Positions 4,726 to 16,185 of a stretch of DNA of 64,000 nt are shown here, piece by piece. The stretch covers positions 1 through 64,000 of the IMG/VR virus record IMGVR_UViG_3300033156_000312; one strand, given 5' to 3'. Position 1 is the first letter of the stretch. Every line of letters begins with the position of its first letter. The DNA comes from a virus. The translations under genes were made by a program, and so were the position numbers. A model generated the notes under the pieces. The model worked only from the letters and a program-made list of their open reading frames with translations, was not told the origin of the DNA and did no database searches.

Positions 4726-4921
4726 TAGAGAACAACAAGATAGAGAATTAGGAAAAGCTTTGAAAATTTTAAAAAGAAAGCTTGCAAAAGAAGGGGTATT
4801 TCAAGTTTTGAAACAAAAACGATATTATATTAAGCCAAGTGAAATAAAACATAAAAAAGCTATGGATTTAAGACATAAAAAGAAATTGACGGAGCGAAAT
4901 CGTGGAAAAAAGAAAAGATAA
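4697..4921 (+). CDS. rpsU: phage-encoded ribosomal protein bS21
   Basis: 74 residues, nearly the length of E. coli bS21 (71). The order of features is that of bS21: an N-terminal strand VKVRQ, the helix with LGKALKILKRKLAKEGV, the signature KQKRYYIKPSE, and an extended Lys/Arg tail. bS21 sits at the 30S platform beside the anti-Shine-Dalgarno end of 16S rRNA and affects initiation. Phage bS21 genes are known from metagenomic large phages and are thought to enter host ribosomes and favour phage mRNAs. A GGAAAAGGAAA ribosome site precedes ATG. The gene overlaps the nuclease gene by 20 nt. Confidence 0.85.
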   Translation: MIVKVRQINNREQQDRELGKALKILKRKLAKEGVFQVLKQKRYYIKPSEIKHKKAMDLRHKKKLTERNRGKKKR

Positions 4922-5738
4922 AGTTATAATACTGGATTATGGGATATTTATGTTTAGAAGTATTTATTCTTGGAGAAATAATAAACAAATTCCTCCAGAA
5001 TACACGTGTTTAAATATGATGACTTCTTGTTTGAAAAAAATCGGTGTAGAACCAATGGATACTATTATTGTAGCATGTGATTATGGAAGAAGTTGGAGAA
5101 AAGATGTAGATAAACAATATAAAGCTGATAGAAAAGAAGCCAGAGAACGACAAACAGACATAAATTGGGAAGATATGTTCAAACGATTTAACGAATTAGA
5201 AAAGAAAATTCAAATTGGAACTGATTGGCATGTAGTAAAGGAATGGTCTTTCGAGGCAGATGACCTTATGGCAGTTGCTTGTCGCTATTATAAAGATAAA
5301 GAAGTAATATTGGTAACGTTTGATGCCGATGTTGAGCAACTGAGTATTTATGATAATGTGAAAATCTTTTCTCCACTAAAAAAATATAAAGGCAAAAAAG
5401 GCGGATATAAACATGTGAAAGAACCTTTGAAAGTATTAGCTCAAAAAATAGAGAAAGAAACGGCTGATAATTTAACTAATCCCATATTAAGCAAAGAGGA
5501 CTATGAAAAGAGAGAACAAATAGTTTCTTTGCTGACACTTCCAGAATTTGTAGAAAATAGAATTAAAGATATTTACGATAATTTGACTGAAAAAGAATAT
5601 ATAAATGACAATGCAATTCCATATTCTACTATGCGAAATAAAATAGCTACTCTTTATAATAATAAAAAGGATATTGTGAACTATGAAGATTCCATAAATT
5701 ATAAACCAAAGAAAAGAAGAAAGAAATGCAAAAAATAA
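4902..5738 (+). CDS. 5'-3' exonuclease / flap endonuclease (PIN-like)
   Basis: 278 residues from a GTG start with GGAG 9 nt upstream. Acidic active-site residues appear in the family order: D12 (LDYG), D60 (ACDYG, followed by the basic helix KADRKEARER), E118-D120-D121 (FEADDLMAV), and D141/D143 (TFDADVEQL). This is the T5 D15/T4 RNase H/PolI 5'-nuclease pattern that removes RNA primers and flaps on lagging strands. The C-terminal third ends in a Lys/Arg cluster. The family-B polymerase at 26.7 kb lacks this activity, so this gene would complement it. Confidence 0.85.
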   Translation: MEKRKDKVIILDYGIFMFRSIYSWRNNKQIPPEYTCLNMMTSCLKKIGVEPMDTIIVACDYGRSWRKDVDKQYKADRKEARERQTDINWEDMFKRFNELEKKIQIGTDWHVVKEWSFEADDLMAVACRYYKDKEVILVTFDADVEQLSIYDNVKIFSPLKKYKGKKGGYKHVKEPLKVLAQKIEKETADNLTNPILSKEDYEKREQIVSLLTLPEFVENRIKDIYDNLTEKEYINDNAIPYSTMRNKIATLYNNKKDIVNYEDSINYKPKKRRKKCKK

Positions 5739-6463: not shown

Positions 6464-6994
6464 ATGAAATTCAAGGTAGCCTTTTATAAGAATGGGAGCT
6501 ATCTAATTAAGATGGTTCTTGATGAAGGTGAAGAAGTTTGGGCAAAAACTACAAAAAAAGTTCATGATTATGCTAAAAAGAACTTTACAGAGAATGAAGA
6601 GTGTGATTACGATTATGAAGAAAAGAATGGTGAATACTTCATAAATCGTATTTTGAAAAAAGGTTCTGGCACTACAAAGAAATCTTCTAAAACAGAAAAC
6701 AGAAAGAAATATTGTGAATGTGGAGCTGAAATAAAGAATACAAAGTATGATAAATGTTACACTTGCAATCAGAAAAGCGGAAAAACTGACAGCAGTGGGA
6801 AACCTAATTATGGTGCAGGTGCACCTTATGGAAGCTTACTCCCAGATGAAGCAGAAAGAAGAAACAAATTAGCAACACTTTCTTCCGTCTGTGAAGCTGT
6901 GCAAGTTATGACAGGTCAAGTGCAAGACGCAGACACACTTGCCGATATGATTTTAGTGATTTATGATAAATTATATGACAAATTATTCAGATAA
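6464..6994 (+). CDS. zinc-ribbon protein, possible ssDNA-binding
   Basis: 176 residues with a perfect AGGAGG site. Residues 1-65 look like a small beta-barrel (MKFKVAFYKNGSYLIKM, EYFINRILKKG), followed by a flexible Lys/Ser linker, a four-Cys zinc ribbon (YCECGAEI, KCYTCNQKS, about residues 83-105), a Gly-rich linker and a C-terminal helical part. This barrel-ribbon-linker layout is common in phage ssDNA-binding or recombination accessory proteins, but no exact match is recognised. Confidence 0.6.
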   Translation: MKFKVAFYKNGSYLIKMVLDEGEEVWAKTTKKVHDYAKKNFTENEECDYDYEEKNGEYFINRILKKGSGTTKKSSKTENRKKYCECGAEIKNTKYDKCYTCNQKSGKTDSSGKPNYGAGAPYGSLLPDEAERRNKLATLSSVCEAVQVMTGQVQDADTLADMILVIYDKLYDKLFR

Positions 6995-7013: not shown

Positions 7014-7598
7014 ATGTCGAAGAAAATAAAACATAAAAAGAACCCTGCTCACAGAGGAAAAGAACAAAAGATAGATATAGAACAGATATTGCTCAAAAAT
7101 CGTCAGTTATTTTTATTTGGTGCGATAGATGAAAAAATGGCATACAATGTAACTCAACGAATGATAGCTCTTGCCAGAATTAGCTCAGAACCTATTGTGC
7201 TATACATTAATTCGTCTGGCGGTTGTGTAGATGATGGATTTGCGATAATTGATTGTATGAAAGGAGTTAATGTTCCTGTCATCACGTTTATAGTAGGAAA
7301 CGCTTGTTCAATGGCAGGATTAGTTGCAATAGCAGGGGATAAGAGAGTAATAACGGAACATTCAGTGATAATGTTTCACGATATGCAAGCAGGTATTATA
7401 GACTATGCAACAAAAATAGAAGATAGAGCAGAATTTTATAAAAGAGAACAGAAAAAATTGTTTGATTTTATTCGAAAATATACAAACCTATCAGAAAAAG
7501 AAATCCAAAAAGCTATTCATGGAGAACTATGGTTATATCCTCAAGAATGTATTAAAAAAGGTATAACTGATATGATTGCTGGCGATAAGGAGAAATAA
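7014..7598 (+). CDS. ClpP-like serine protease
   Basis: 194 residues from the ATG at 7014, chosen because AGAAGGTG lies 7 nt upstream; a longer frame from 6963 would overlap the previous gene. The ClpP fold is clear: YINSSGGCVDDGFAIID (oxyanion strand and loop), nucleophile Ser99 in GNACSMAG, His122 in VIMFHDMQ. Where ClpP has its catalytic Asp the sequence has Glu171 (HGELWLYPQE). ClpP works as tetradecameric chambers fed by AAA+ unfoldases; no unfoldase is visible here, so it may pair with host ClpX/ClpA. It opens a run of four consecutive protease genes. A role as head maturation protease is unlikely away from capsid genes. Confidence 0.85.
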   Translation: MSKKIKHKKNPAHRGKEQKIDIEQILLKNRQLFLFGAIDEKMAYNVTQRMIALARISSEPIVLYINSSGGCVDDGFAIIDCMKGVNVPVITFIVGNACSMAGLVAIAGDKRVITEHSVIMFHDMQAGIIDYATKIEDRAEFYKREQKKLFDFIRKYTNLSEKEIQKAIHGELWLYPQECIKKGITDMIAGDKEK

Positions 7599-7599
7599 A

Positions 7600-7863
7600 A
7601 TGATAAGAAATAAAACTCATATTTTTAGGATAATGACACTATTGTTTAAGGTTTGGGTAAGAAATCCTAATTTAAGATTTTGTCAATTGATACAAAACTG
7701 TTTTAGAAGTAGTTGGGCCAACAAAGATGAAAAAATTTATTACGGACAAGGGAAAGATATTTATTACGAAGAAGATAAAGAATTAGAACGTAGATTGAGA
7801 GAAGTTTATTTGAGAGGAGATAGTAATGGGAACACTAATAAGAATACTAAAAGCAAGTTTTAA
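7600..7863 (+). CDS. small phage protein with LRF-QL motif
   Basis: 87 residues from ATG 7600 (GGAGAAATAAA upstream). FKVWVRNPNLRFCQLIQN followed by an acidic stretch (IYYEEDKELERRLREVYL) resembles a small family common in phages, in which a WxxxPdLRxxQL motif precedes a conserved acidic D/E-D segment. Function unknown. It lies between the ClpP-like gene and the anchored protease gene and overlaps the latter by 38 nt. Confidence 0.6.
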   Translation: MIRNKTHIFRIMTLLFKVWVRNPNLRFCQLIQNCFRSSWANKDEKIYYGQGKDIYYEEDKELERRLREVYLRGDSNGNTNKNTKSKF

Positions 7864-8563
7864 ACCATTATTGATTGTATTATTAGTTTTCAACTTGATA
7901 GCTATTTATAATTTGCTTGAAACCCTTGCAATATTTCAACAACAAATAAATCTAAAAGAGGAAATATTACTTCAAGAAATTCAATGTTTGAGAAAAGAAA
8001 TTAAAACCGTAGATATACCCGAAATTGAAAAATTGAAAAAAGCAAATGTATTAATAGAAAATGTAACTATAAAACGTTGTGGGTCGGGGACACATATCAA
8101 AATAGATAAAAAAAGTTATATTTTGACTTGTGCTCATTTAATAAAAGAGAATAATAATATAATTAACGCTAAATTAGATAATGGAGATACGCATCCATTA
8201 CAATTATTAAAAAAGAATAAAGAATTAGATTTAGCTTTATTTAAAATTTGGGCAGTGGGGGATTTGCCTTATTTAGAAATTAGTGATGAAGAACCGAAAG
8301 AAGGAAGCGAAGTAACTGTAATAGGAAATCCCAACGCTATTGTTGATGTTGTAACAGATGGAATAATATCACATATAGACGATAAAGGATATACTATTAC
8401 AAATACAATATTTTTTGGAAGTAGTGGGGGTTGTGTTATATACAAAAATCGCATCATTGGAGTAGTTACACAATTTCGTATTTTCTTTAATCCTCCTGTA
8501 ATAGCCAATTATGGTTATGCTATAAAATTAAGTATAATTCAAGAATTTTTAAAAGGACTATAA
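7826..8563 (+). CDS. membrane-anchored trypsin-like serine protease (DegS-like topology)
   Basis: 245 residues. Residues 14-35 form one N-terminal membrane span, 36-70 a coiled-coil-like stalk, and 80-245 a chymotrypsin-fold domain with His104 (TCAHLI), Asp135 (ELDLALFK) and Ser200 (FGSSGG). One N-terminal anchor plus a periplasmic trypsin domain is the topology of DegS, which makes the first cut in an anti-sigma factor; unlike DegS there is no PDZ domain. GAGGAGATAGTA is a strong ribosome site. It lies two genes upstream of an RseP-like protease, supporting a shared pathway. Confidence 0.85.
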   Translation: MGTLIRILKASFKPLLIVLLVFNLIAIYNLLETLAIFQQQINLKEEILLQEIQCLRKEIKTVDIPEIEKLKKANVLIENVTIKRCGSGTHIKIDKKSYILTCAHLIKENNNIINAKLDNGDTHPLQLLKKNKELDLALFKIWAVGDLPYLEISDEEPKEGSEVTVIGNPNAIVDVVTDGIISHIDDKGYTITNTIFFGSSGGCVIYKNRIIGVVTQFRIFFNPPVIANYGYAIKLSIIQEFLKGL

Positions 8564-8564
8564 A

Positions 8565-8708
8565 ATGAGAGACCCAAAATTACATTCTCGTTACATAGAT
8601 GGTAGAACATTAAAAGCTTATTACTGCATAGAACCTAATTGTAATAACGATTTTATTTGTAAATTTTGCGGAAAATCGCAAATTAAAAAGAAAGGTGATG
8701 ACAAATGA
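8565..8708 (+). CDS. 47-aa zinc-finger protein, possible HNH-module remnant
   Basis: 47 residues with CIEPNC and CKFCGKS, a possible zinc knuckle. The segment HSRYIDGRTLKAYYC resembles the start of the HNH endonuclease at 38.3 kb (NSNYIDGRCLKKHYC), so this may be a leftover or domesticated N-terminal module of a homing gene inserted between the two proteases. AAAAGGACT gives a ribosome site, and its TGA overlaps the next ATG. Confidence 0.5.
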   Translation: MRDPKLHSRYIDGRTLKAYYCIEPNCNNDFICKFCGKSQIKKKGDDK

Positions 8709-9490
8709 AAAATCTAATGAAATACCTTGCTCTGATTACTTTAGCAATTGCCTTAATTTGTCAGCAAAATCCGAATAATTCTCAAGATGTGTTTGTTACT
8801 GATGAGAAGACATTACAATCTAAATTTGATACAAAACGGTTTGATTCCTTATTTACTTCGGAAACTCTCAAATTGAGACAAGGCATGGTTGCTGTAAAAG
8901 TTGGTAAAAGAGGTGGTGCAGGAGTAATAGTTGAGATAGATGATAAGTATTTATATGTGCTTACCGCTAAACATATTTTATTACAAAAAGGACAACTTGC
9001 GATAGAAGTTTTAGATAAAAACAGTAAATCAACTATTATCAAAAATATTTCAAAAACAAATACAGTAAAACATAGAAAAGTAGATTTGGGATTAATTAAA
9101 GTGCCAAGACCTGAAGGAGATTTCGGGACAATTAAATTAGCTGAGAGACCTGTTTTAATTGGTGAAAAAATACGTGTGGTCGGACATCCCTGTAATATTT
9201 ATTATGCTATTACAGAGGGTATAGTTTCAAGTTATAAGAAAAGAAAATTTCAAGGAATTAAAGAAGAATACATAGTTGTATCTGCTCCTTCTTTTAGTGG
9301 AGGGTCAGGAGGAGCTTTAATAAATAGCAAAGGACAATTAGCAGGTATTGTGGTCGGGATAATGTATATAGGACGAAATGCGATGGATTATAAAAACACT
9401 GTATATGTGTTTCATATCGTGTATGTAACAAAATTAGAATTTATTAAAGATTTCTTGTATAAAAATGGAATTATAATGAGGATTCAATGA
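8705..9490 (+). CDS. exported trypsin-like serine protease
   Basis: 261 residues. Residues 1-20 are a signal peptide (KYLALITLAIALICQQ); the Cys at 19 is close to a lipobox but not canonical, so lipidation is uncertain. The trypsin-fold triad is His90 (LTAKHILL), Asp127 (KVDLGLIKV) and Ser201 (FSGGSGGAL). It is a second, distinct S1 protease next to the anchored one, with no PDZ domain. It overlaps the site-2 protease gene by 4 nt (ATGA), so the two are probably made in step. Likely located in the periplasm or on the cell surface. Confidence 0.85.
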   Translation: MKNLMKYLALITLAIALICQQNPNNSQDVFVTDEKTLQSKFDTKRFDSLFTSETLKLRQGMVAVKVGKRGGAGVIVEIDDKYLYVLTAKHILLQKGQLAIEVLDKNSKSTIIKNISKTNTVKHRKVDLGLIKVPRPEGDFGTIKLAERPVLIGEKIRVVGHPCNIYYAITEGIVSSYKKRKFQGIKEEYIVVSAPSFSGGSGGALINSKGQLAGIVVGIMYIGRNAMDYKNTVYVFHIVYVTKLEFIKDFLYKNGIIMRIQ

Positions 9491-10134
9491 TGATAAGCAT
9501 AGTCGTGTTCCTAATGGGATTGCTGTTAGCCATTATCATTCATGAAGTAGGGCACACACTCAGTGCTCTGCTTCTGGGCGTAGAAGTGGAAGTGTTTAGT
9601 ATAGGATTTGGAAAAGTGATTTGGAAGAAAAAATGGAGAAATATACAATGGCAAGTAGCTTTAATTCCTTTAGGAGGTTATACAAAATTAGCTGGAGAAG
9701 ATAATAAATCTCCTCACGGATTTTTGTCTCAACCTTATTGGAAGAAAGTCATTATTTTAATATCAGGGGTATTAATGAATTTGTTACTTGCTTGTGTGAT
9801 ATATCTTATTCATTACGAAAATATTTGGACAGGTATGCGAATAGATTGGAACATATTGACTTGGATATTCACACATCAAAGAGATTTAATATATACATTT
9901 GTATATGTAGCACAACCAAATCTTTTACTTTTACAAATTAGTTTAATAAATTTCGGGTTAGCTTTATTTAATATATTGCCTCTGCCTTCTTTGGATGGTG
10001 GCATGTTATGGGCAGTGTTATTAGAAAATAAAGTTGCAGATTTTGAAACCTTTTTGAAAAAATTTAGTTATTATGGATTTTTATTTCTATTATTCTTACA
10101 ATTTATTTTAATCTATTGGGTCTATTGGGGATAA
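9487..10134 (+). CDS. RseP-like site-2 metalloprotease (M50)
   Basis: 215 residues with about four membrane spans. HEVGH (19-23) in the first span is the zinc site; IPLGGYTKLAGED (60-72) matches the membrane-reentrant segment of RseP; NILPLPSLDGG (162-172) is the second signature carrying the third zinc ligand Asp170. These three motifs define site-2 proteases that cleave within membrane helices. E. coli RseP has about 450 residues with two PDZ domains; here they are absent, giving a minimal core. It directly follows two S1 proteases, which would be the expected site-1 enzymes. Confidence 0.9.
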   Translation: MMISIVVFLMGLLLAIIIHEVGHTLSALLLGVEVEVFSIGFGKVIWKKKWRNIQWQVALIPLGGYTKLAGEDNKSPHGFLSQPYWKKVIILISGVLMNLLLACVIYLIHYENIWTGMRIDWNILTWIFTHQRDLIYTFVYVAQPNLLLLQISLINFGLALFNILPLPSLDGGMLWAVLLENKVADFETFLKKFSYYGFLFLLFLQFILIYWVYWG

Positions 10135-10137
10135 AAA

Positions 10138-11718
10138 ATGTTAAAGTGGTTCTTTAGTCCTATAACAGGAGAAAATAAATTGCGTTACTTTTTTACGGCA
10201 GATTACCACTTAGGCCACGCTAACATCATAAAATATTGCAATAGACCTTTCAAAAGCGTGCATCATATGAATAAAGAGATAATCAGGAGACACAATGAAA
10301 GAGTAAAAGAAGATGATATAGTTTTTATGATTGGAGATTTTTGTGTATCAGGAGATACTTATATAGATACTCCTCAAGGACGCAAGCAAATTCGCATTTT
10401 AAAAAAAGGGGATAAAGTATATTCGGTTAATTTAAAAAATAAACAGTTAGAGATTTCTAATATAAATAAAGTTTGGAGAACTAAAAGTAAAATACGTTAT
10501 CATCTGATATTAGAAAATAATATTACGCTTAAAGTTACTTCAGAACATCCTTTCGCTGTTAGTAGAAATAAGGTTTTAAAGTGGGTAAAAGCTAAAAATT
10601 TAAAATCAGGAGACGTTCTATTTAGAAAGAAAGATTCATTACCACGAATATTGAAATTAAAAAAACAGGAAAAAAACTATATGATAGGATATATTTTGGG
10701 ATATAGTTATGGAGATGGATACTTTAATAAGTATTCTGTAGTTATAGATAGTAAAGATAAAGAAGGACTACAAAGAATAGTAAATTATATTCAAAAATTA
10801 TATAACAGAAAATTAAAAATACGACTAACAAAACTTGTATATTATCGTTTAAGAATACCCTATGATATATATAATTCTTTGAAAAATCGGGATTTAACTT
10901 TCAAAAAAATCAATCGAAATATACCAAAATGGTATTATGGTTTTTTAGCAGGATTTTATGATGCAGAAGGTAATTGCCAGTATCAAAATCATAATTGGTA
11001 TATTAGATTAGGGTCTACTGATAAAAAATTATTTAATTTTGTTGTTTTGTTATTAAAATATTTTAATTTATCTATTATTACAAGAAAATGCAAACAATAC
11101 AAACATTATAAAGTTTTTTATGAGATAAAATTATTAACTAAAGAAACTTTTAATTTTTTCTTACAAATTAGACCTGCAATTAAAAGAAAATATCCAGATT
11201 TAAAAATATTATCTAATGGAACTAAAATTAAACAAATAATTAAAGTTAAACATAAATATAACAAATATTTTAAAAATTATAATCTAACTGTTGAACCAAA
11301 CAACAATTATTTTATTAAAGGAATTTTAGTTCATAATTGTTTCAAAGGTGGAAAAGAAGGCGGGAAAATTTCAGCGTTGAAATGGGAAAAAAGATTAAAT
11401 GGCAAAATAATATATATCAAAGGAAATCATGATAAAAGGAATTCTGTCAAAACGATAATAGAACGTCTTGTAATAAAATATGAAAATAAAAGAATTAATT
11501 TAGTGCATAGGCCCGAATTTGCAGATGTAAATTATGAAATTAATTTCACTGGACACGTGCATAAAAACTGGAAAATTGAAAGAATAAGAAAAGGATTTCA
11601 ATTTACGAACTGTATTAACGTAGGTATAGATGTATGGGATTTTTATCCTGTAACTTATGAAGAGATTATGAAAAGATATAGTCATTGGAAAAAGAACTTG
11701 AAATTAAAATATGAATAA
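10138..11718 (+). CDS. metallophosphoesterase interrupted by a LAGLIDADG intein
   Basis: 526 residues before splicing. The host protein is a calcineurin-type phosphoesterase: ADYHLGHANII (metal motif 1), MIGDF (motif 2), IKGNHDK (motif 3) and FTGHVH (motif 5). Right after GDF an insertion starts at Cys69 and ends at His399-Asn400, followed by Cys401, so splicing would restore GDFCFKGG and a 194-residue enzyme. The intact extein family cleaves phosphodiesters or phosphomonoesters; its substrate is unknown. Gene ends overlap by 8 nt with the following HExxH protease gene. Confidence 0.9.
   Translation: MLKWFFSPITGENKLRYFFTADYHLGHANIIKYCNRPFKSVHHMNKEIIRRHNERVKEDDIVFMIGDFCVSGDTYIDTPQGRKQIRILKKGDKVYSVNLKNKQLEISNINKVWRTKSKIRYHLILENNITLKVTSEHPFAVSRNKVLKWVKAKNLKSGDVLFRKKDSLPRILKLKKQEKNYMIGYILGYSYGDGYFNKYSVVIDSKDKEGLQRIVNYIQKLYNRKLKIRLTKLVYYRLRIPYDIYNSLKNRDLTFKKINRNIPKWYYGFLAGFYDAEGNCQYQNHNWYIRLGSTDKKLFNFVVLLLKYFNLSIITRKCKQYKHYKVFYEIKLLTKETFNFFLQIRPAIKRKYPDLKILSNGTKIKQIIKVKHKYNKYFKNYNLTVEPNNNYFIKGILVHNCFKGGKEGGKISALKWEKRLNGKIIYIKGNHDKRNSVKTIIERLVIKYENKRINLVHRPEFADVNYEINFTGHVHKNWKIERIRKGFQFTNCINVGIDVWDFYPVTYEEIMKRYSHWKKNLKLKYE
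10342..11337 (+). mobile_element. intein with LAGLIDADG homing endonuclease
   Basis: 332 codons. Block A starts CVSGDTYIDT at Cys1; block B is VTSEHPF with the TxxH histidine; two LAGLIDADG-like motifs (IGYILGYSYGDGYF and YGFLAGFYDAEGN) mark the endonuclease; block F/G ends YFIKGILVHN before extein Cys. All residues needed for class 1 splicing (Cys1, block B His, penultimate His, terminal Asn, +1 Cys) are visible, so it is probably active. The endonuclease would spread the intein into empty alleles of the phosphoesterase gene. Confidence 0.9.
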
Positions 11719-12151
11719 AATACGATTTTTTAAAAGAAAAGTAAAAGAATTAGCTTTACTTACAAACATAGAAGAAGATATAGAATTAAGACGTGATAAT
11801 AGATTAGGAGGATATAGTGCTTGTATATGTTTATATTTATATTGCGATACACATGAACCTGTATATTTAATGAGATATAATGAACGAAAGATTAAAGATA
11901 TGACTAAAGCAGAAATTTTGAATATGATATTTCATGAACTTGGGCATATTAAATTTAAACATGAATATGATAACAAGAAGTCTATTGAACAAATGGAATA
12001 TGAAGCAGAAAAATTTGCTATTGAAAATATACGGCGACATTATCCTCAATACTTTCAAAAAGTATACTGTAATTTGAAAAAATACAAAACACATGATAGA
12101 GCAGTATATCGAAAAGCGTTTGGTAAATTAATTGATGAGATTAAGATATGA
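11711..12151 (+). CDS. ImmA/IrrE-like HExxH metallopeptidase
   Basis: 146 residues. HELGH (75-79) is the zinc-binding helix and EYEAEKFA (96-103) fits the downstream ExxAxxFA helix that gives the third ligand in ImmA/IrrE-type (M78) gluzincins. ImmA-type enzymes cleave repressors such as ImmR and often sit in mobile elements. Unlike many, it has no HTH domain. It follows the protease-phosphoesterase block, and a possible promoter follows it. The substrate is unknown: a host or phage regulator is a reasonable guess. Confidence 0.75.
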   Translation: MNKIRFFKRKVKELALLTNIEEDIELRRDNRLGGYSACICLYLYCDTHEPVYLMRYNERKIKDMTKAEILNMIFHELGHIKFKHEYDNKKSIEQMEYEAEKFAIENIRRHYPQYFQKVYCNLKKYKTHDRAVYRKAFGKLIDEIKI

Positions 12152-12262: not shown

Positions 12263-13489
12263 ATGAAACAACGAAAAGTTAAAATACCATTTTTGGTGTA
12301 TCTTTTCTTCATTTTAATTTATGCCAATCAAGGATTATCATCTTTGCCTTCACAGGCAATTTATTACCTGACTCGTGAAACCTGGAAACTATCAGCTACT
12401 ATGCTTGGAGGATTAGCGTTTATAACGTCTTTTGCATGGTATATTAAACCTTTATTTGGTATAGCTATTGATTGTTATCCTATTTCTAATTATCGAGCTA
12501 AATATTATCTCTGGATAAATTATCTATTTTTAGTGTTTACAGGGATATATATTATTATATTTGGTTTCAATTTGGTTAGTTTAATTATAATTATGTTTCT
12601 TATGAATATAGCCATTGGATTTAATGATGTGGCCAACGACGCACAAATGGTAAAGCTCGAACAAAAACATAATCTCAAAGGTAAAATACAAGCGATACAA
12701 TGGATTTCATTAGGAGTTGCAGGATTAATTGTTTCTTTAGGTGGTGCGTGGATAGCCAAAACATTTCCAGAGCCACTCAATTATAAAATAGCTTATAGCA
12801 TTTGGCTATTATTGCCTCTTGGAACTTTATTTTATCTCGCAAAAGGATATAAAGAAAAGAAAGTAACAGAACGCAAAAGTTTTACTCAACTCAAAGAAAA
12901 TTTTAAGAAATTGAAAAACAAAGCATTTCTAATAGGAATATTATTCATAGCGTTTTTAAGATTCAGTCCTTCATTCGGAACAGCATTGATGATTAAAATG
13001 CGAGAGACTATGGGGATAGATAAAATGTTTTTGGGGTATATGGGAGCAACTGGCACAGTGTTAGGATTAATAGGATATGCAATATATTATTGGAAAGCAT
13101 ATAAATTCCCAATGAAAAAATTGTTATATTTTACTATTATATTTTCGGCGTTAGCGAATTTATGTTATTTATATATTCCAAATAAATGGTTTATATTTGG
13201 ATATAGCATTGCTTTCGGAGCCTTTGATGGAGTTTGTTTTTTGACAGTATTAGCGTTTATGGCAAAAATCGTTCCCGTAGGGGCAGAGGGATTATTTTAT
13301 GCTTTAATAACATCTATTAATAACTTTGCAGGACGATTAGGAGGAATGATGGGTTGCATGATTTATGATAAAATGGGATATGAAACAAATGTAATTGTAG
13401 CTTCAATTACCACATTAATGTGTATAATATTTGTGCCTTTATTGCATTTTAAAGGAGAACGAAAGGACGTCAAAGAAAAGATATTGTAA
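12263..13489 (+). CDS. folate/biopterin transporter-like MFS protein (BT1 family)
   Basis: 408 residues with about 12 hydrophobic spans. Near the N-terminus, GLSSLPSQAIYYLTRE, then LGGLAFITSFAWYIKPLFG and AIDCYPI fit the BT1/folate-biopterin transporter pattern (LP--A--Y-L, W-IKPL-G, SD--P), and VANDAQMVKL fits the segment where BT1 proteins have a conserved D-ADA motif. BT1 proteins are proton-coupled carriers of folates or pterins in protists, plants and cyanobacteria. A phage copy would be an auxiliary metabolic gene, possibly feeding one-carbon metabolism for dTMP. GGAGATAAC is the ribosome site. It could be another MFS subgroup. Confidence 0.75.
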   Translation: MKQRKVKIPFLVYLFFILIYANQGLSSLPSQAIYYLTRETWKLSATMLGGLAFITSFAWYIKPLFGIAIDCYPISNYRAKYYLWINYLFLVFTGIYIIIFGFNLVSLIIIMFLMNIAIGFNDVANDAQMVKLEQKHNLKGKIQAIQWISLGVAGLIVSLGGAWIAKTFPEPLNYKIAYSIWLLLPLGTLFYLAKGYKEKKVTERKSFTQLKENFKKLKNKAFLIGILFIAFLRFSPSFGTALMIKMRETMGIDKMFLGYMGATGTVLGLIGYAIYYWKAYKFPMKKLLYFTIIFSALANLCYLYIPNKWFIFGYSIAFGAFDGVCFLTVLAFMAKIVPVGAEGLFYALITSINNFAGRLGGMMGCMIYDKMGYETNVIVASITTLMCIIFVPLLHFKGERKDVKEKIL

Positions 13490-13546
13490 AGAAAGCGATT
13501 GATAATTATATTGAATGGTTTAGAGAGAAAATTAAGGAACATAAAA

Positions 13547-13828
13547 ATGATAGCTAAGATGTTATTTTCGATTAGTGGCACACTCTGGGCAATAGAAATG
13601 TTGCCACAGATATATAAAACATATAAAATAAAATCTGTGCAAGATATTTCTCTGTTTTTTCCTTCACTTTGTTTTATATCATTTTGTTGTTTTTTAACAG
13701 CAAGTTTTATGACACAAAATTGGATTTTAGTAAAGACACATATTTTCCCATTTGTATGTAACACTGTGTTTCTAATACAAACTTTAATTTATAGGAGAAA
13801 TAATGATGAAACTAATAGACTATATTAA
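13547..13828 (+). CDS. SemiSWEET-like PQ-loop membrane protein
   Basis: 93 residues from ATG 13547 (AAGGA upstream). Three membrane spans with LPQIYKTYKIKSVQDISL in the first loop, the PQ-loop signature of SemiSWEET/SWEET sugar carriers; bacterial SemiSWEETs have about this size and work as dimers. It could carry a sugar or another small solute. It directly follows the BT1-like transporter, suggesting a small transport operon. The gene overlaps the next by 26 nt. Confidence 0.75.
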   Translation: MIAKMLFSISGTLWAIEMLPQIYKTYKIKSVQDISLFFPSLCFISFCCFLTASFMTQNWILVKTHIFPFVCNTVFLIQTLIYRRNNDETNRLY

Positions 13829-14516: not shown

Positions 14517-14672
14517 ATGGAATGTAAATACTGCAAAAGAGAATTACCTAATAAAAAACATGAAACAAAAAATGGCTGTATCTGGTGCGATTCTAAATAT
14601 CATTATAAACAGCAAAAAATAGAATTCTTAAAAATATTGTCGGAACTCATTAAGATATATAGAGTTAGATAA
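14517..14672 (+). CDS. 51-aa zinc-knuckle protein
   Basis: 51 residues beginning MECKYCKRELPNKKHE with CIWCDS a little later: two CxxC pairs that form a small zinc ribbon, followed by a helix (KIEFLKILSELIKIY). TAGGAGAAATAG is the ribosome site. It is the last gene before the second strong promoter. Function unknown, probably nucleic-acid or protein binding. Confidence 0.6.
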   Translation: MECKYCKRELPNKKHETKNGCIWCDSKYHYKQQKIEFLKILSELIKIYRVR

Positions 14673-14704
14673 ATGTTAAACAAAAAAAAGTAAGTTTGTC
14701 TGAC

Positions 14705-14734
14705 TTGTCAGTGCTACTAAAAGTATGATATACT
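14705..14734 (+). promoter_or_regulatory. strong sigma70-type promoter, second copy
   Basis: TTGTCA (14705-14710), an 18-bp spacer and TATACT (14729-14734) with extended -10 TG (14726-14727). It shares CAGTGC after the -35 box and GTATGATATACTTATAGT around the -10 box with the promoter at 485-514. It should drive the 14.76 kb and following genes. Confidence 0.8.
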
Positions 14735-14761
14735 TATAGTGAGAGGGAAAGAAGATATTAC

Positions 14762-14974
14762 ATGAAGAATCCTAAACTTAGAATTAGAAAAAAGATAAAA
14801 ATATCAGGGATTAAACGTCTCAAAAATTTAATTAAAGAAGATATTCATTATGGATTATTGGATATTGAACCTTATATAGTTGCTGATATTATGAGAAGAT
14901 TAAAAAAAGAAGGTATTATTTATGTCTCGAAAACATCGAAGAAAAATAGAAAGAAAAAGAAGAGAAAAAAATAA
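14762..14974 (+). CDS. basic hypothetical protein
   Basis: 70 residues, first gene after the 14705-14734 promoter. It starts KNPKLRIRKKIKISG and ends in a run of Lys/Arg. The middle (DIEPYIVADIMRRLKKEGII) could be a small winged-helix-like element. No family is recognised. It overlaps the next gene by 53 nt, more than usual in this genome. Confidence 0.55.
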   Translation: MKNPKLRIRKKIKISGIKRLKNLIKEDIHYGLLDIEPYIVADIMRRLKKEGIIYVSKTSKKNRKKKKRKK

Positions 14975-15158
14975 ATCTCGTAGGAGAAAAGGATGGCTTA
15001 GCAAACATTTAGATAGTGCTCCTACGAATAGATGGACAAAGATAACTACCTATTTTTTAATGTTATTTGAATTTGTTTTTGTTATTTGGTGGCTTCAAGA
15101 ATTACTTTTAAATTGGAATGAAATTATAACAAAATTTAAACAGTTGATAGGGAGATAA
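14922..15158 (+). CDS. single-pass membrane protein with Arg-rich N-terminus
   Basis: 78 residues: the first 25 are Arg/Lys-rich (KHRRKIERKRREKNKSRRRK), then a linker, then one membrane span (ITTYFLMLFEFVFVIWWLQE). By the positive-inside rule the basic end should face the cytoplasm, where it may touch nucleic acid or lipid head groups. AGAAGG precedes ATG by about 10 nt. Function unknown. Confidence 0.55.
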   Translation: MSRKHRRKIERKRREKNKSRRRKGWLSKHLDSAPTNRWTKITTYFLMLFEFVFVIWWLQELLLNWNEIITKFKQLIGR

Positions 15159-15161
15159 AAA

Positions 15162-15530
15162 ATGAGAGAGATTAAATTTAAGGCTTGGAATAAAAAAGAT
15201 AACTGTTGGTTAGGAGTTGAATTAACACTAAAAGATTTTGAAGAAAATAAGGGCATAACGACCAATGCTGACGATTTTATATTTTCGCAATACACGGGCT
15301 TGAAAGACAAGAACGGTAAAGAGATATACGAAGGGGATATAGTTGAAATGGATGTATGGTGGAAAAGACACAATTATAAAGAATTAGTAAAATTTGAAGA
15401 TGGTAGGTTTTATCCTTTTACAGAGTATTATCATACTTGTGAGGGAATAAAATTAATTTTGTCTGATATACATTGTAAAATAATTGGTAACATTTATGAA
15501 AATCCTGAGCTTATGGAGAAAACAAAATGA
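15162..15530 (+). CDS. YopX-family protein
   Basis: 122 residues. REIKFKAWNK at the start, QYTGLKDKNGKEIYEGDIV in the middle and IIGNIYENPEL at the end are the landmarks of YopX (PF09643), a small all-beta family found in many phages of Firmicutes and others. The biochemical role is unknown. AGGGAGATAAAA precedes ATG. Confidence 0.85.
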   Translation: MREIKFKAWNKKDNCWLGVELTLKDFEENKGITTNADDFIFSQYTGLKDKNGKEIYEGDIVEMDVWWKRHNYKELVKFEDGRFYPFTEYYHTCEGIKLILSDIHCKIIGNIYENPELMEKTK

Positions 15531-15988
15531 TAGAATTTACTTATTTATATAGAATAGGGTTAGCCCTTATATTAAGCTTATTTATAGGTTGGGAAAGAGA
15601 ACAACAGCATAAAGGGGCAGGGCTTAGAACTATCTCTTTAATTACTCTGGGAGCTACTCTAATAGTTATTACTACTTTAAAATGGGACATATATAAGGGA
15701 TTAAATAATTCTTTTGATGCAATCAGAGCAATTGCTTATTATCTCGTAGGAATTGGGTTTGTTGGTGGAGGATTGATAAGACAGAAGAATGGAAAACTTT
15801 TAGGACTTACAACTGCTTCTTTATTGCTTCCCGTATCAGTAATAGGTTTCTTATGTGGAATGGGAGAATATATATTAGCAGTTATTTCAGCAATAATTAT
15901 TTTCTTTATTCTTAAATTGAAATATGTGAAAATTAGATTTGAAAAAGTTAACAGAAGAAGAAAAAGAAGATGCAGAAGAATAAAGTAG
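15527..15988 (+). CDS. MgtC/SapB-family membrane protein
   Basis: 153 residues. The MgtC/SapB hallmark order is present: GLALILSLFIGWERE, then KGAGLRTISLITLGA, then GIGFVGGGLI and LGLTTASLLL, over four to five membrane spans. Full MgtC has an extra C-terminal cytoplasmic domain; here only a basic tail remains (NRRRKRRCRR). MgtC in pathogens inhibits the F1Fo ATP synthase and is needed in low Mg2+. In a phage it could tune host energy or ion balance. ATGA-coupled to the YopX gene. Confidence 0.8.
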   Translation: MIEFTYLYRIGLALILSLFIGWEREQQHKGAGLRTISLITLGATLIVITTLKWDIYKGLNNSFDAIRAIAYYLVGIGFVGGGLIRQKNGKLLGLTTASLLLPVSVIGFLCGMGEYILAVISAIIIFFILKLKYVKIRFEKVNRRRKRRCRRIK

Positions 15989-16185
15989 AGATATTAAGAA
16001 ATGCTAACACTTCAATCTGTTGGACTTGTGAAGGATTAAGAGCCATTTATAATAAGAAAAAAGATACTATTGATATTTGTCCTACTTGTAATGGCACAGG
16101 TATATTCGTAGAAACGCATTATTATCATATATTTATTGATAAAAAAGGTAATAAATGTGCTATTGATTCTGATACTTTAGCATAA
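15970..16185 (+). CDS. DnaJ-type zinc-finger small protein
   Basis: 71 residues with CWTCEG (19-24) and CPTCNGTG (about 38-45), the CxxCxG repeats typical of DnaJ-like zinc modules, in a single copy. The rest (VETHYYHIFIDKKGNKCAI) looks like beta strands. Such single modules occur in many phages, with unknown targets. It overlaps the MgtC-like gene by 19 nt. Confidence 0.6.
   Translation: MQKNKVEILRNANTSICWTCEGLRAIYNKKKDTIDICPTCNGTGIFVETHYYHIFIDKKGNKCAIDSDTLA

What the first reader, a model, noticed from the sequence alone, without database searches (positions are those of the whole stretch)
7014..10134. Phage protease cassette that matches the parts of a DegS-RseP-ClpP intramembrane proteolysis cascade
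In consecutive genes the phage encodes a ClpP-like protease (Ser99, His122), an S1 protease with one N-terminal membrane anchor (triad His104-Asp135-Ser200), a second S1 protease with a signal peptide (His90-Asp127-Ser201) and a PDZ-less RseP-like site-2 protease (HEVGH; NILPLPSLDGG). In bacteria, DegS makes the first cut in an anti-sigma factor, RseP the second in the membrane, and ClpXP destroys the remnant. Motifs and order are seen; the pathway role is my inference. It could release or silence a host sigma factor, disable membrane receptors for other phages, or process phage membrane proteins.
Basis: partly seen in the sequence, partly recalled or inferred. Interest (0 to 1): 0.92.

Follow-up and report, generated by a model that had tools for sequence, protein, structure and literature searches.

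The report
Phage membrane-protease and ClpP gene island
An uncultured phage and its distant relatives carry a gene island for cutting proteins: a ClpP-type barrel protease, export-type serine proteases and a stripped-down membrane-embedded metalloprotease, which together look like tools for taking apart membrane proteins during infection, although what they cut is unknown.

Summary
Window 7014-10134 encodes a full-length ClpP (S14), two HtrA-type S1 proteases with N-terminal membrane segments, and a 215-aa site-2 protease (M50), all with catalytic residues intact. Two small ORFs lie between them, and the third ClpP residue is Glu, not Asp.

Related IMG/VR phages keep the cassette. ClpP, S1, M50 occur in the same order in three diverged genomes, and S1 and M50 reading frames overlap by 1-4 bases in three. 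H/E/H/D of M50 and H/D/S of S1 never vary. The genes belong to a larger, variable island (also peptide deformylase, an HslV-like protease, an M78-like metallopeptidase, a phosphoesterase, MFS and PQ-loop transporters) inserted between exonuclease and primase-polymerase genes.

The specific DegS-RseP-ClpXP sigma-factor reading is not supported. Neither S1 nor M50 has a PDZ domain, the gate that makes RseP wait for DegS. M50 and S1 also occur apart. My best reading is ungated clearance of host or phage membrane proteins by S1 and M50, with ClpP removing soluble remnants. All M50 matches I inspected among GenBank phage records were bacterial contamination. The substrate and host are unknown.

The parts
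4902..5738 (+). 5'-3' exonuclease, left landmark of the island
   Evidence: PF02739 1e-15; orthologues flank the island in relatives
6464..6994 (+). 176-aa protein, no family match; left border of the island in relatives
   Evidence: orthologues next to exonuclease and ClpP or primase-polymerase in relatives
7014..7598 (+). ClpP (peptidase S14), full-length, Ser99-His122-Glu171; the mechanical ORF extends to 6963 but ATG 7014 fits
   Evidence: PF00574 3e-37; PDB ClpP to 2e-23 over residues 17-190; conserved residues
7600..7863 (+). small basic ORF between ClpP and S1-A, unknown function
   Evidence: PHROG 8499 7e-4; 40% identical ORF at the same place in L046 and L048
7826..8563 (+). S1-A: HtrA/DegS-type serine protease with N-terminal membrane anchor, no PDZ; triad H104-D135-S200
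   Evidence: PF13365 4e-17; AlphaFold model pLDDT 82, Foldseek HtrA1 and PDZ-deleted DegS E~1e-11; topology
8565..8708 (+). small ORF (47 aa, Cys-rich) overlapping the S1-B start
   Evidence: sequence read directly
8705..9490 (+). S1-B: HtrA-type serine protease with N-terminal hydrophobic segment, no PDZ; triad H90-D127-S201
   Evidence: PF13365 4e-17, PF00089 6e-10; orthologues of the pair in L046 and L048
9487..10134 (+). minimal site-2 protease (M50), RseP-like core without PDZ insert; HEVGH 19-23, D170; start overlaps the S1-B stop by 4 bases
   Evidence: PF02163 9e-38; model pLDDT 89, Foldseek RseP E 1e-7; 15-phage alignment
10138..11718 (+). metallophosphoesterase interrupted by a LAGLIDADG intein
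   Evidence: PHROG 547 2e-34, PF14890 1e-18, PF14528 4e-12
11711..12151 (+). M78/Lit-like putative metallopeptidase, island member in relatives
   Evidence: PF18894 1e-4 and PF06114 8e-4, both just under cut-off; orthologues
12263..13489 (+). MFS transporter (BT1/folate-biopterin type), island member
   Evidence: PF03092 9e-25; next to M50 or ClpP in relatives
13499..13828 (+). PQ-loop (SemiSWEET-like) membrane protein, island member
   Evidence: PF04193 1e-8; orthologues in L046, L048
19024..20913 (+). primase-polymerase/helicase, right landmark of the island
   Evidence: PHROG 1156 2e-19; relatives found with it

Best explanation
This is an accessory protein-processing island of a tailed-phage lineage, encoded on the same strand as the replication genes. 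Shown by sequence: catalytically complete ClpP, one or two HtrA-type S1 proteases with N-terminal membrane segments, and a PDZ-less site-2 protease. Inferred mechanism: the S1 enzymes, facing the outer side of the inner membrane, trim extracytoplasmic parts of host or phage membrane proteins. The M50, which lacks the PDZ size filter, cuts transmembrane stubs and small single-span proteins inside the membrane. ClpP, with a host unfoldase such as ClpX, finishes released soluble pieces. The likely result is broad remodelling of the infected cell's membrane proteome (removing host proteins, small toxins or excess membrane proteins, possibly making room for the phage's own transporters), not a dedicated sigma-factor switch.
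For: Catalytic residues invariant in 17/17 M50, 12/12 S1 and 11/11 ClpP (Ser, His) proteins from phages that are only about 20-45% identical. S1 and M50 overlap by 1-4 bases in the window, L009 and L040. ClpP>S1>M50 order in window, L009 and L038. Every minimal-M50 record of at least 38 kb (leaving out the atypical, truncated M50 of G029) also has an S1 gene (12 of 12), against 4 of 7 relatives above 40 kb without M50 (Fisher p 0.036, not corrected for kinship). A second lineage, including a Gp23-bearing 235-kb phage, has a different M50 with an S1 gene 2-3 kb downstream. Every S1 has an N-terminal hydrophobic segment. S1-A models as an HtrA protease domain and M50 as the RseP core. No PDZ domain is detected. 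E. coli RseP degrades small membrane proteins including the toxin HokB (PMC10470546).
Against: No substrate is known. Co-occurrence is partly shared ancestry. S1 pairs occur without M50 in the L046 and L048 islands, and M50 sits next to deformylase with S1 far away in L013, L042 and L043, so a tight S1-M50 partnership is not required. ClpP needs a host unfoldase that could not be checked. Membership of a variable island can also mean independent accessory genes.
Confidence: 0.42

Rival explanations
1. One reading: a phage copy of the DegS-RseP-ClpXP cascade that cuts a host anti-sigma factor in sequence and changes sigma-factor activity.
For: All three enzyme classes adjacent; DegS-like topology; RseP-like core; overlapping S1-M50 genes.
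Against: No PDZ sensor or filter in either protease; without the filter RseP cuts RseA independently of DegS (PMC10202637; PMC7728848); no anti-sigma or sigma gene recognised in the cassette; parts are separable in relatives.
Confidence: 0.1
2. M50 works alone as a membrane clean-up or counter-defence enzyme, degrading remnant signal peptides and small single-span toxins such as Hok-type proteins; the S1 and ClpP genes have separate roles.
For: PDZ-less core should accept short substrates; RseP suppresses HokB toxicity (PMC10470546); M50 occurs without adjacent S1 (L013, L042, L043, L054).
Against: S1 present in every long minimal-M50 record counted and overlapping S1-M50 genes in three phages.
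Confidence: 0.23
3. The island is a collection of independent accessory genes inserted at a permissive site between the exonuclease/176-aa gene and the primase gene, with no shared pathway.
For: Relatives L049, L053 and L059 have the 176-aa-like gene next to the primase without the island; content shuffles between deformylase, HslV-like, ClpP, S1, M50, phosphoesterase and transporters.
Against: Strong enrichment for protein-processing enzymes; recurrent ClpP>S1 and S1>M50 order; independent M50-S1 pairing in a second phage lineage.
Confidence: 0.17
4. The proteases process the phage's own proteins: ClpP as head maturation protease, S1 and M50 for virion or lysis membrane proteins.
For: Best PHROG for ClpP is a head maturation family (5e-36).
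Against: ClpP sits among replication genes on the opposite strand from the portal-like and terminase-like ORFs and keeps the N-terminal region of ATP-dependent ClpP; score below the NCBIfam head-maturation cut-off (90 of 120 bits).
Confidence: 0.08

Closest known systems
RseP (group I site-2 protease, M50)
   Same: HExxH and LDG motifs, FSIGFG and PLGGY core segments, catalytic half superposes on Aquifex and E. coli RseP
   Different: 215 aa, no PDZ domains between the second and third core helices, below the RseP NCBIfam cut-off
DegS / HtrA (S1C)
   Same: Triad, N-terminal anchor and fold of the PDZ-deleted DegS protease domain
   Different: No PDZ domain; 245-261 aa; far below DegS cut-offs
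ClpP (S14)
   Same: Full-length alignment including N-terminal region, Ser and His
   Different: Third residue Glu; no phage unfoldase recognised in the cassette; below bacterial ClpP equivalog cut-offs
Peptidase M50 of uncultured Caudovirales phages (BFVD A0A6J5SMS1, A0A6J5RHB6)
   Same: M50 fold annotated in uncultured phage sequence
   Different: Only 17-19% identical in the structural alignment; genomic context and function not examined
SpoIVFB (PDZ-less site-2 protease)
   Same: Site-2 protease without PDZ that works without a site-1 cut (PMC10202637); weak structural match
   Different: Group III with a CBS domain; sporulation sigma-K substrate

Membership tests
RseP-type group I site-2 protease | HExxH and LDG zinc site in core helices | tested here: met
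   Invariant in 17 of 17 phage M50; model
RseP-type group I site-2 protease | PDZ domain(s) inserted between the second and third core helices | tested here: not met
   215 aa, no PDZ Pfam match; alignment gap; model
RseP-type group I site-2 protease | Score over RseP NCBIfam cut-off | tested here: not met
   99.6 against 147.55 bits
DegS | S1 triad and N-terminal membrane anchor with exported protease domain | tested here: met
   12 of 12 triads and N-terminal hydrophobic segments; charge bias of S1-A. Prediction, not localisation
DegS | C-terminal PDZ sensor | tested here: not met
   No PDZ match; protein ends after protease domain
ClpP (S14) | Ser-His-Asp triad in full-length ClpP fold | tested here: inconclusive
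   Ser and His present; Glu in place of Asp, conserved in 10 of 11 relatives
ClpP (S14) | Tetradecamer and docking to an AAA+ unfoldase | not testable with these tools
   Needs biochemistry; N-terminal region is retained by alignment
Phage head maturation protease | Gene beside portal/capsid genes and score over family cut-off | tested here: not met
   Lies among replication genes on the + strand; NF045542 90.2 of 120 bits
DegS-RseP-ClpXP anti-sigma cascade | PDZ-gated sequential cleavage | tested here: not met
   No PDZ in S1-A, S1-B or M50
DegS-RseP-ClpXP anti-sigma cascade | Anti-sigma factor substrate cut in sequence | not testable with these tools
   Host and substrate unknown

The most novel reading that the evidence does not exclude
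A phage-encoded, ungated membrane-protein disassembly line: anchored S1 proteases, a stripped site-2 protease and ClpP act in relay to dismantle chosen host membrane proteins (receptors, toxins or transporters) during infection.
Probability: 0.22. Interest if true: 0.85.

Novelty: new variant of a known kind. Interest (0 to 1): 0.62.

Why it matters
Phage-encoded intramembrane site-2 proteases are almost undescribed: PHROGs gave no match to this one, and the M50 matches I inspected among 50,697 phage records were bacterial contamination. A conserved phage set of S1, M50 and ClpP would be a new way for a virus to edit the host envelope proteome, could counter membrane-acting defence toxins, and supplies naturally PDZ-less S1/S2P pairs for testing how regulated intramembrane proteolysis is gated.

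Tried and rejected
Single-protein scans of IMG/VR with M50 and DNA polymerase found nothing; alignment-based scans did. M50 hits in GenBank phage records were examined: the five checked lie among uppS/cdsA/dxr/ispG and other host genes and are contamination. S1 hits in phage records are few and mostly annotated host DegS/Do. Host assignment failed: one relative contig is binned in an Omnitrophota MAG, and a DNA search of 285 genomes of that phylum gave only background-like matches. ClpP as head maturation protease was considered and set aside. The 827-aa virion-module ORF was suspected of being the true head protease, but no family matched. Literature searches on phage site-2 proteases found no relevant paper.

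Full report
What is there. The window is the first 64 kb of an 82,045-base virus record with tail tape measure, baseplate, UvsX, DNA polymerase and primase-polymerase genes and, in the remaining 18 kb, a terminase-like and a portal-like ORF by inspection. Two small ORFs sit between them (7600-7863, 8565-8708). The S1-B stop and the M50 start overlap by four bases.

Active sites. In alignments of the related phage proteins the S1 triad is present in 12 of 12, HExxH plus the LDG aspartate in 17 of 17 M50, and Ser and His in 11 of 11 ClpP, while overall identity is only about 20-45%. The third ClpP residue is glutamate in 10 of 11. The M50 model (pLDDT 89) matches the catalytic half of RseP, and the S1-A model (pLDDT 82) matches HtrA protease domains including DegS with its PDZ removed. 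Neither S1 nor M50 has a PDZ domain by Pfam.

Relatives. A first M50 alignment recovered 30 IMG/VR loci and later scans more. Positions of M50, S1 and ClpP in whole records come, and neighbours from profile searches in Python. ClpP>S1>M50 order is kept in the window, L009 (with a deformylase between ClpP and S1) and L038 (deformylase before M50). S1 and M50 overlap in the window, L009 and L040. L046 and L048 have ClpP, S1-A, S1-B and deformylase but no M50 in the island. L013, L042 and L043 have deformylase directly followed by M50, with S1 more than 20 kb away. The island lies between an exonuclease/176-aa gene and the primase-polymerase, and is missing in L049, L053 and L059, so it is an accessory insertion. 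Other members are an HslV-like peptidase (L013, PHROG 1040 2e-16), M78-like, phosphoesterase, MFS and PQ-loop genes. The minimal phage M50s group together in a small tree (support 84/78), so one origin is possible but not shown.

Association of S1 and M50. Of records of at least 38 kb with a minimal M50, leaving out the truncated, atypical G029 (170 kb, no S1 found), 12 of 12 also encode an S1; of primase relatives above 40 kb without M50, 4 of 7 do (Fisher p 0.036). This ignores kinship and incomplete records, the 38-kb limit was chosen after seeing the data (a 37-kb record, G017, has M50 and no S1), and so it is weak. An unrelated lineage, including a 235-kb record with a T4-type Gp23 capsid gene, places DnaJ, a longer M50 and an exported-looking S1 with intact triad within about 5 kb. 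That recurrence is the better argument for a functional link.

Why not the DegS-RseP-ClpXP cascade. In E. coli the DegS PDZ senses unfolded outer-membrane proteins, and the RseP PDZ tandem is a size filter that makes RseP wait for DegS; disrupting it permits cleavage of RseA without site-1 cleavage (PMC10202637; PMC7728848). The phage enzymes lack both. SpoIVFB, also PDZ-less, works without a site-1 protease (same review). RseP also degrades small membrane proteins and suppresses HokB toxicity (PMC10470546), which gives a plausible job for an ungated phage M50. I therefore favour broad membrane-protein clearance with S1 and ClpP as helpers. This mechanism is inference; only the enzymes, their active-site residues, gene order and predicted topology are shown.

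Novelty. Of the 22 GenBank phage records with an M50 match, the five I inspected were bacterial DNA; the other 17 were not opened. PHROGs had no matching family. BFVD holds two uncultured-phage proteins named M50 or SpoIVFB-like, so phage M50 as such is not unseen. I found no paper describing one, within an open-access library only.

Noticed in passing
window 10138-11718: The metallophosphoesterase is interrupted by an intein with a LAGLIDADG homing endonuclease domain (about residues 69-400); relatives have the intact short gene.
   Followed up: partly
L002 (record 64001-82045) 15304-16149 and 14649-15302: Adjacent papain-like C1 and YiiX-like C92 cysteine peptidase/amidase genes beside the terminase-like ORF: still more protease-like genes in the same phage.
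   Followed up: partly
window 12263-13489; L008 10732-11937; L013 11391-12629: A phage-encoded MFS transporter of the BT1/folate-biopterin type is conserved in the island together with a PQ-loop protein.
   Followed up: partly
L013 10775-11365: HslV-like peptidase in the island next to M50 and ClpP.
   Followed up: partly
L009 8791-9255, L013 9305-9967, L042 9378-10001, L048 4916-5341: Peptide deformylase is a frequent island member, directly before M50 in several phages; the window lacks it.
   Followed up: partly
L020 8988-13750, L028 8973-13767: An unrelated phage lineage with DnaJ, a longer M50 and an S1 protease close together.
   Followed up: partly
L008 8924-9574: Amidoligase gene within the island of a relative.
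   Followed up: no
L054 9995-13039 and 16265-18487; L053 4667-7714; L057 6488-9391: Primase-polymerase (about 1000 aa) and UvsX (740 aa) are much longer than in relatives, perhaps inteins or fused domains.
   Followed up: no
L048 9998-11904: The primase-polymerase is split into two overlapping ORFs (149 and 495 aa) in this relative, perhaps a frameshift.
   Followed up: no
L059: The only genome-collection relative is a 4-kb contig in a Candidatus Omnitrophota MAG; a weak host lead.
   Followed up: partly
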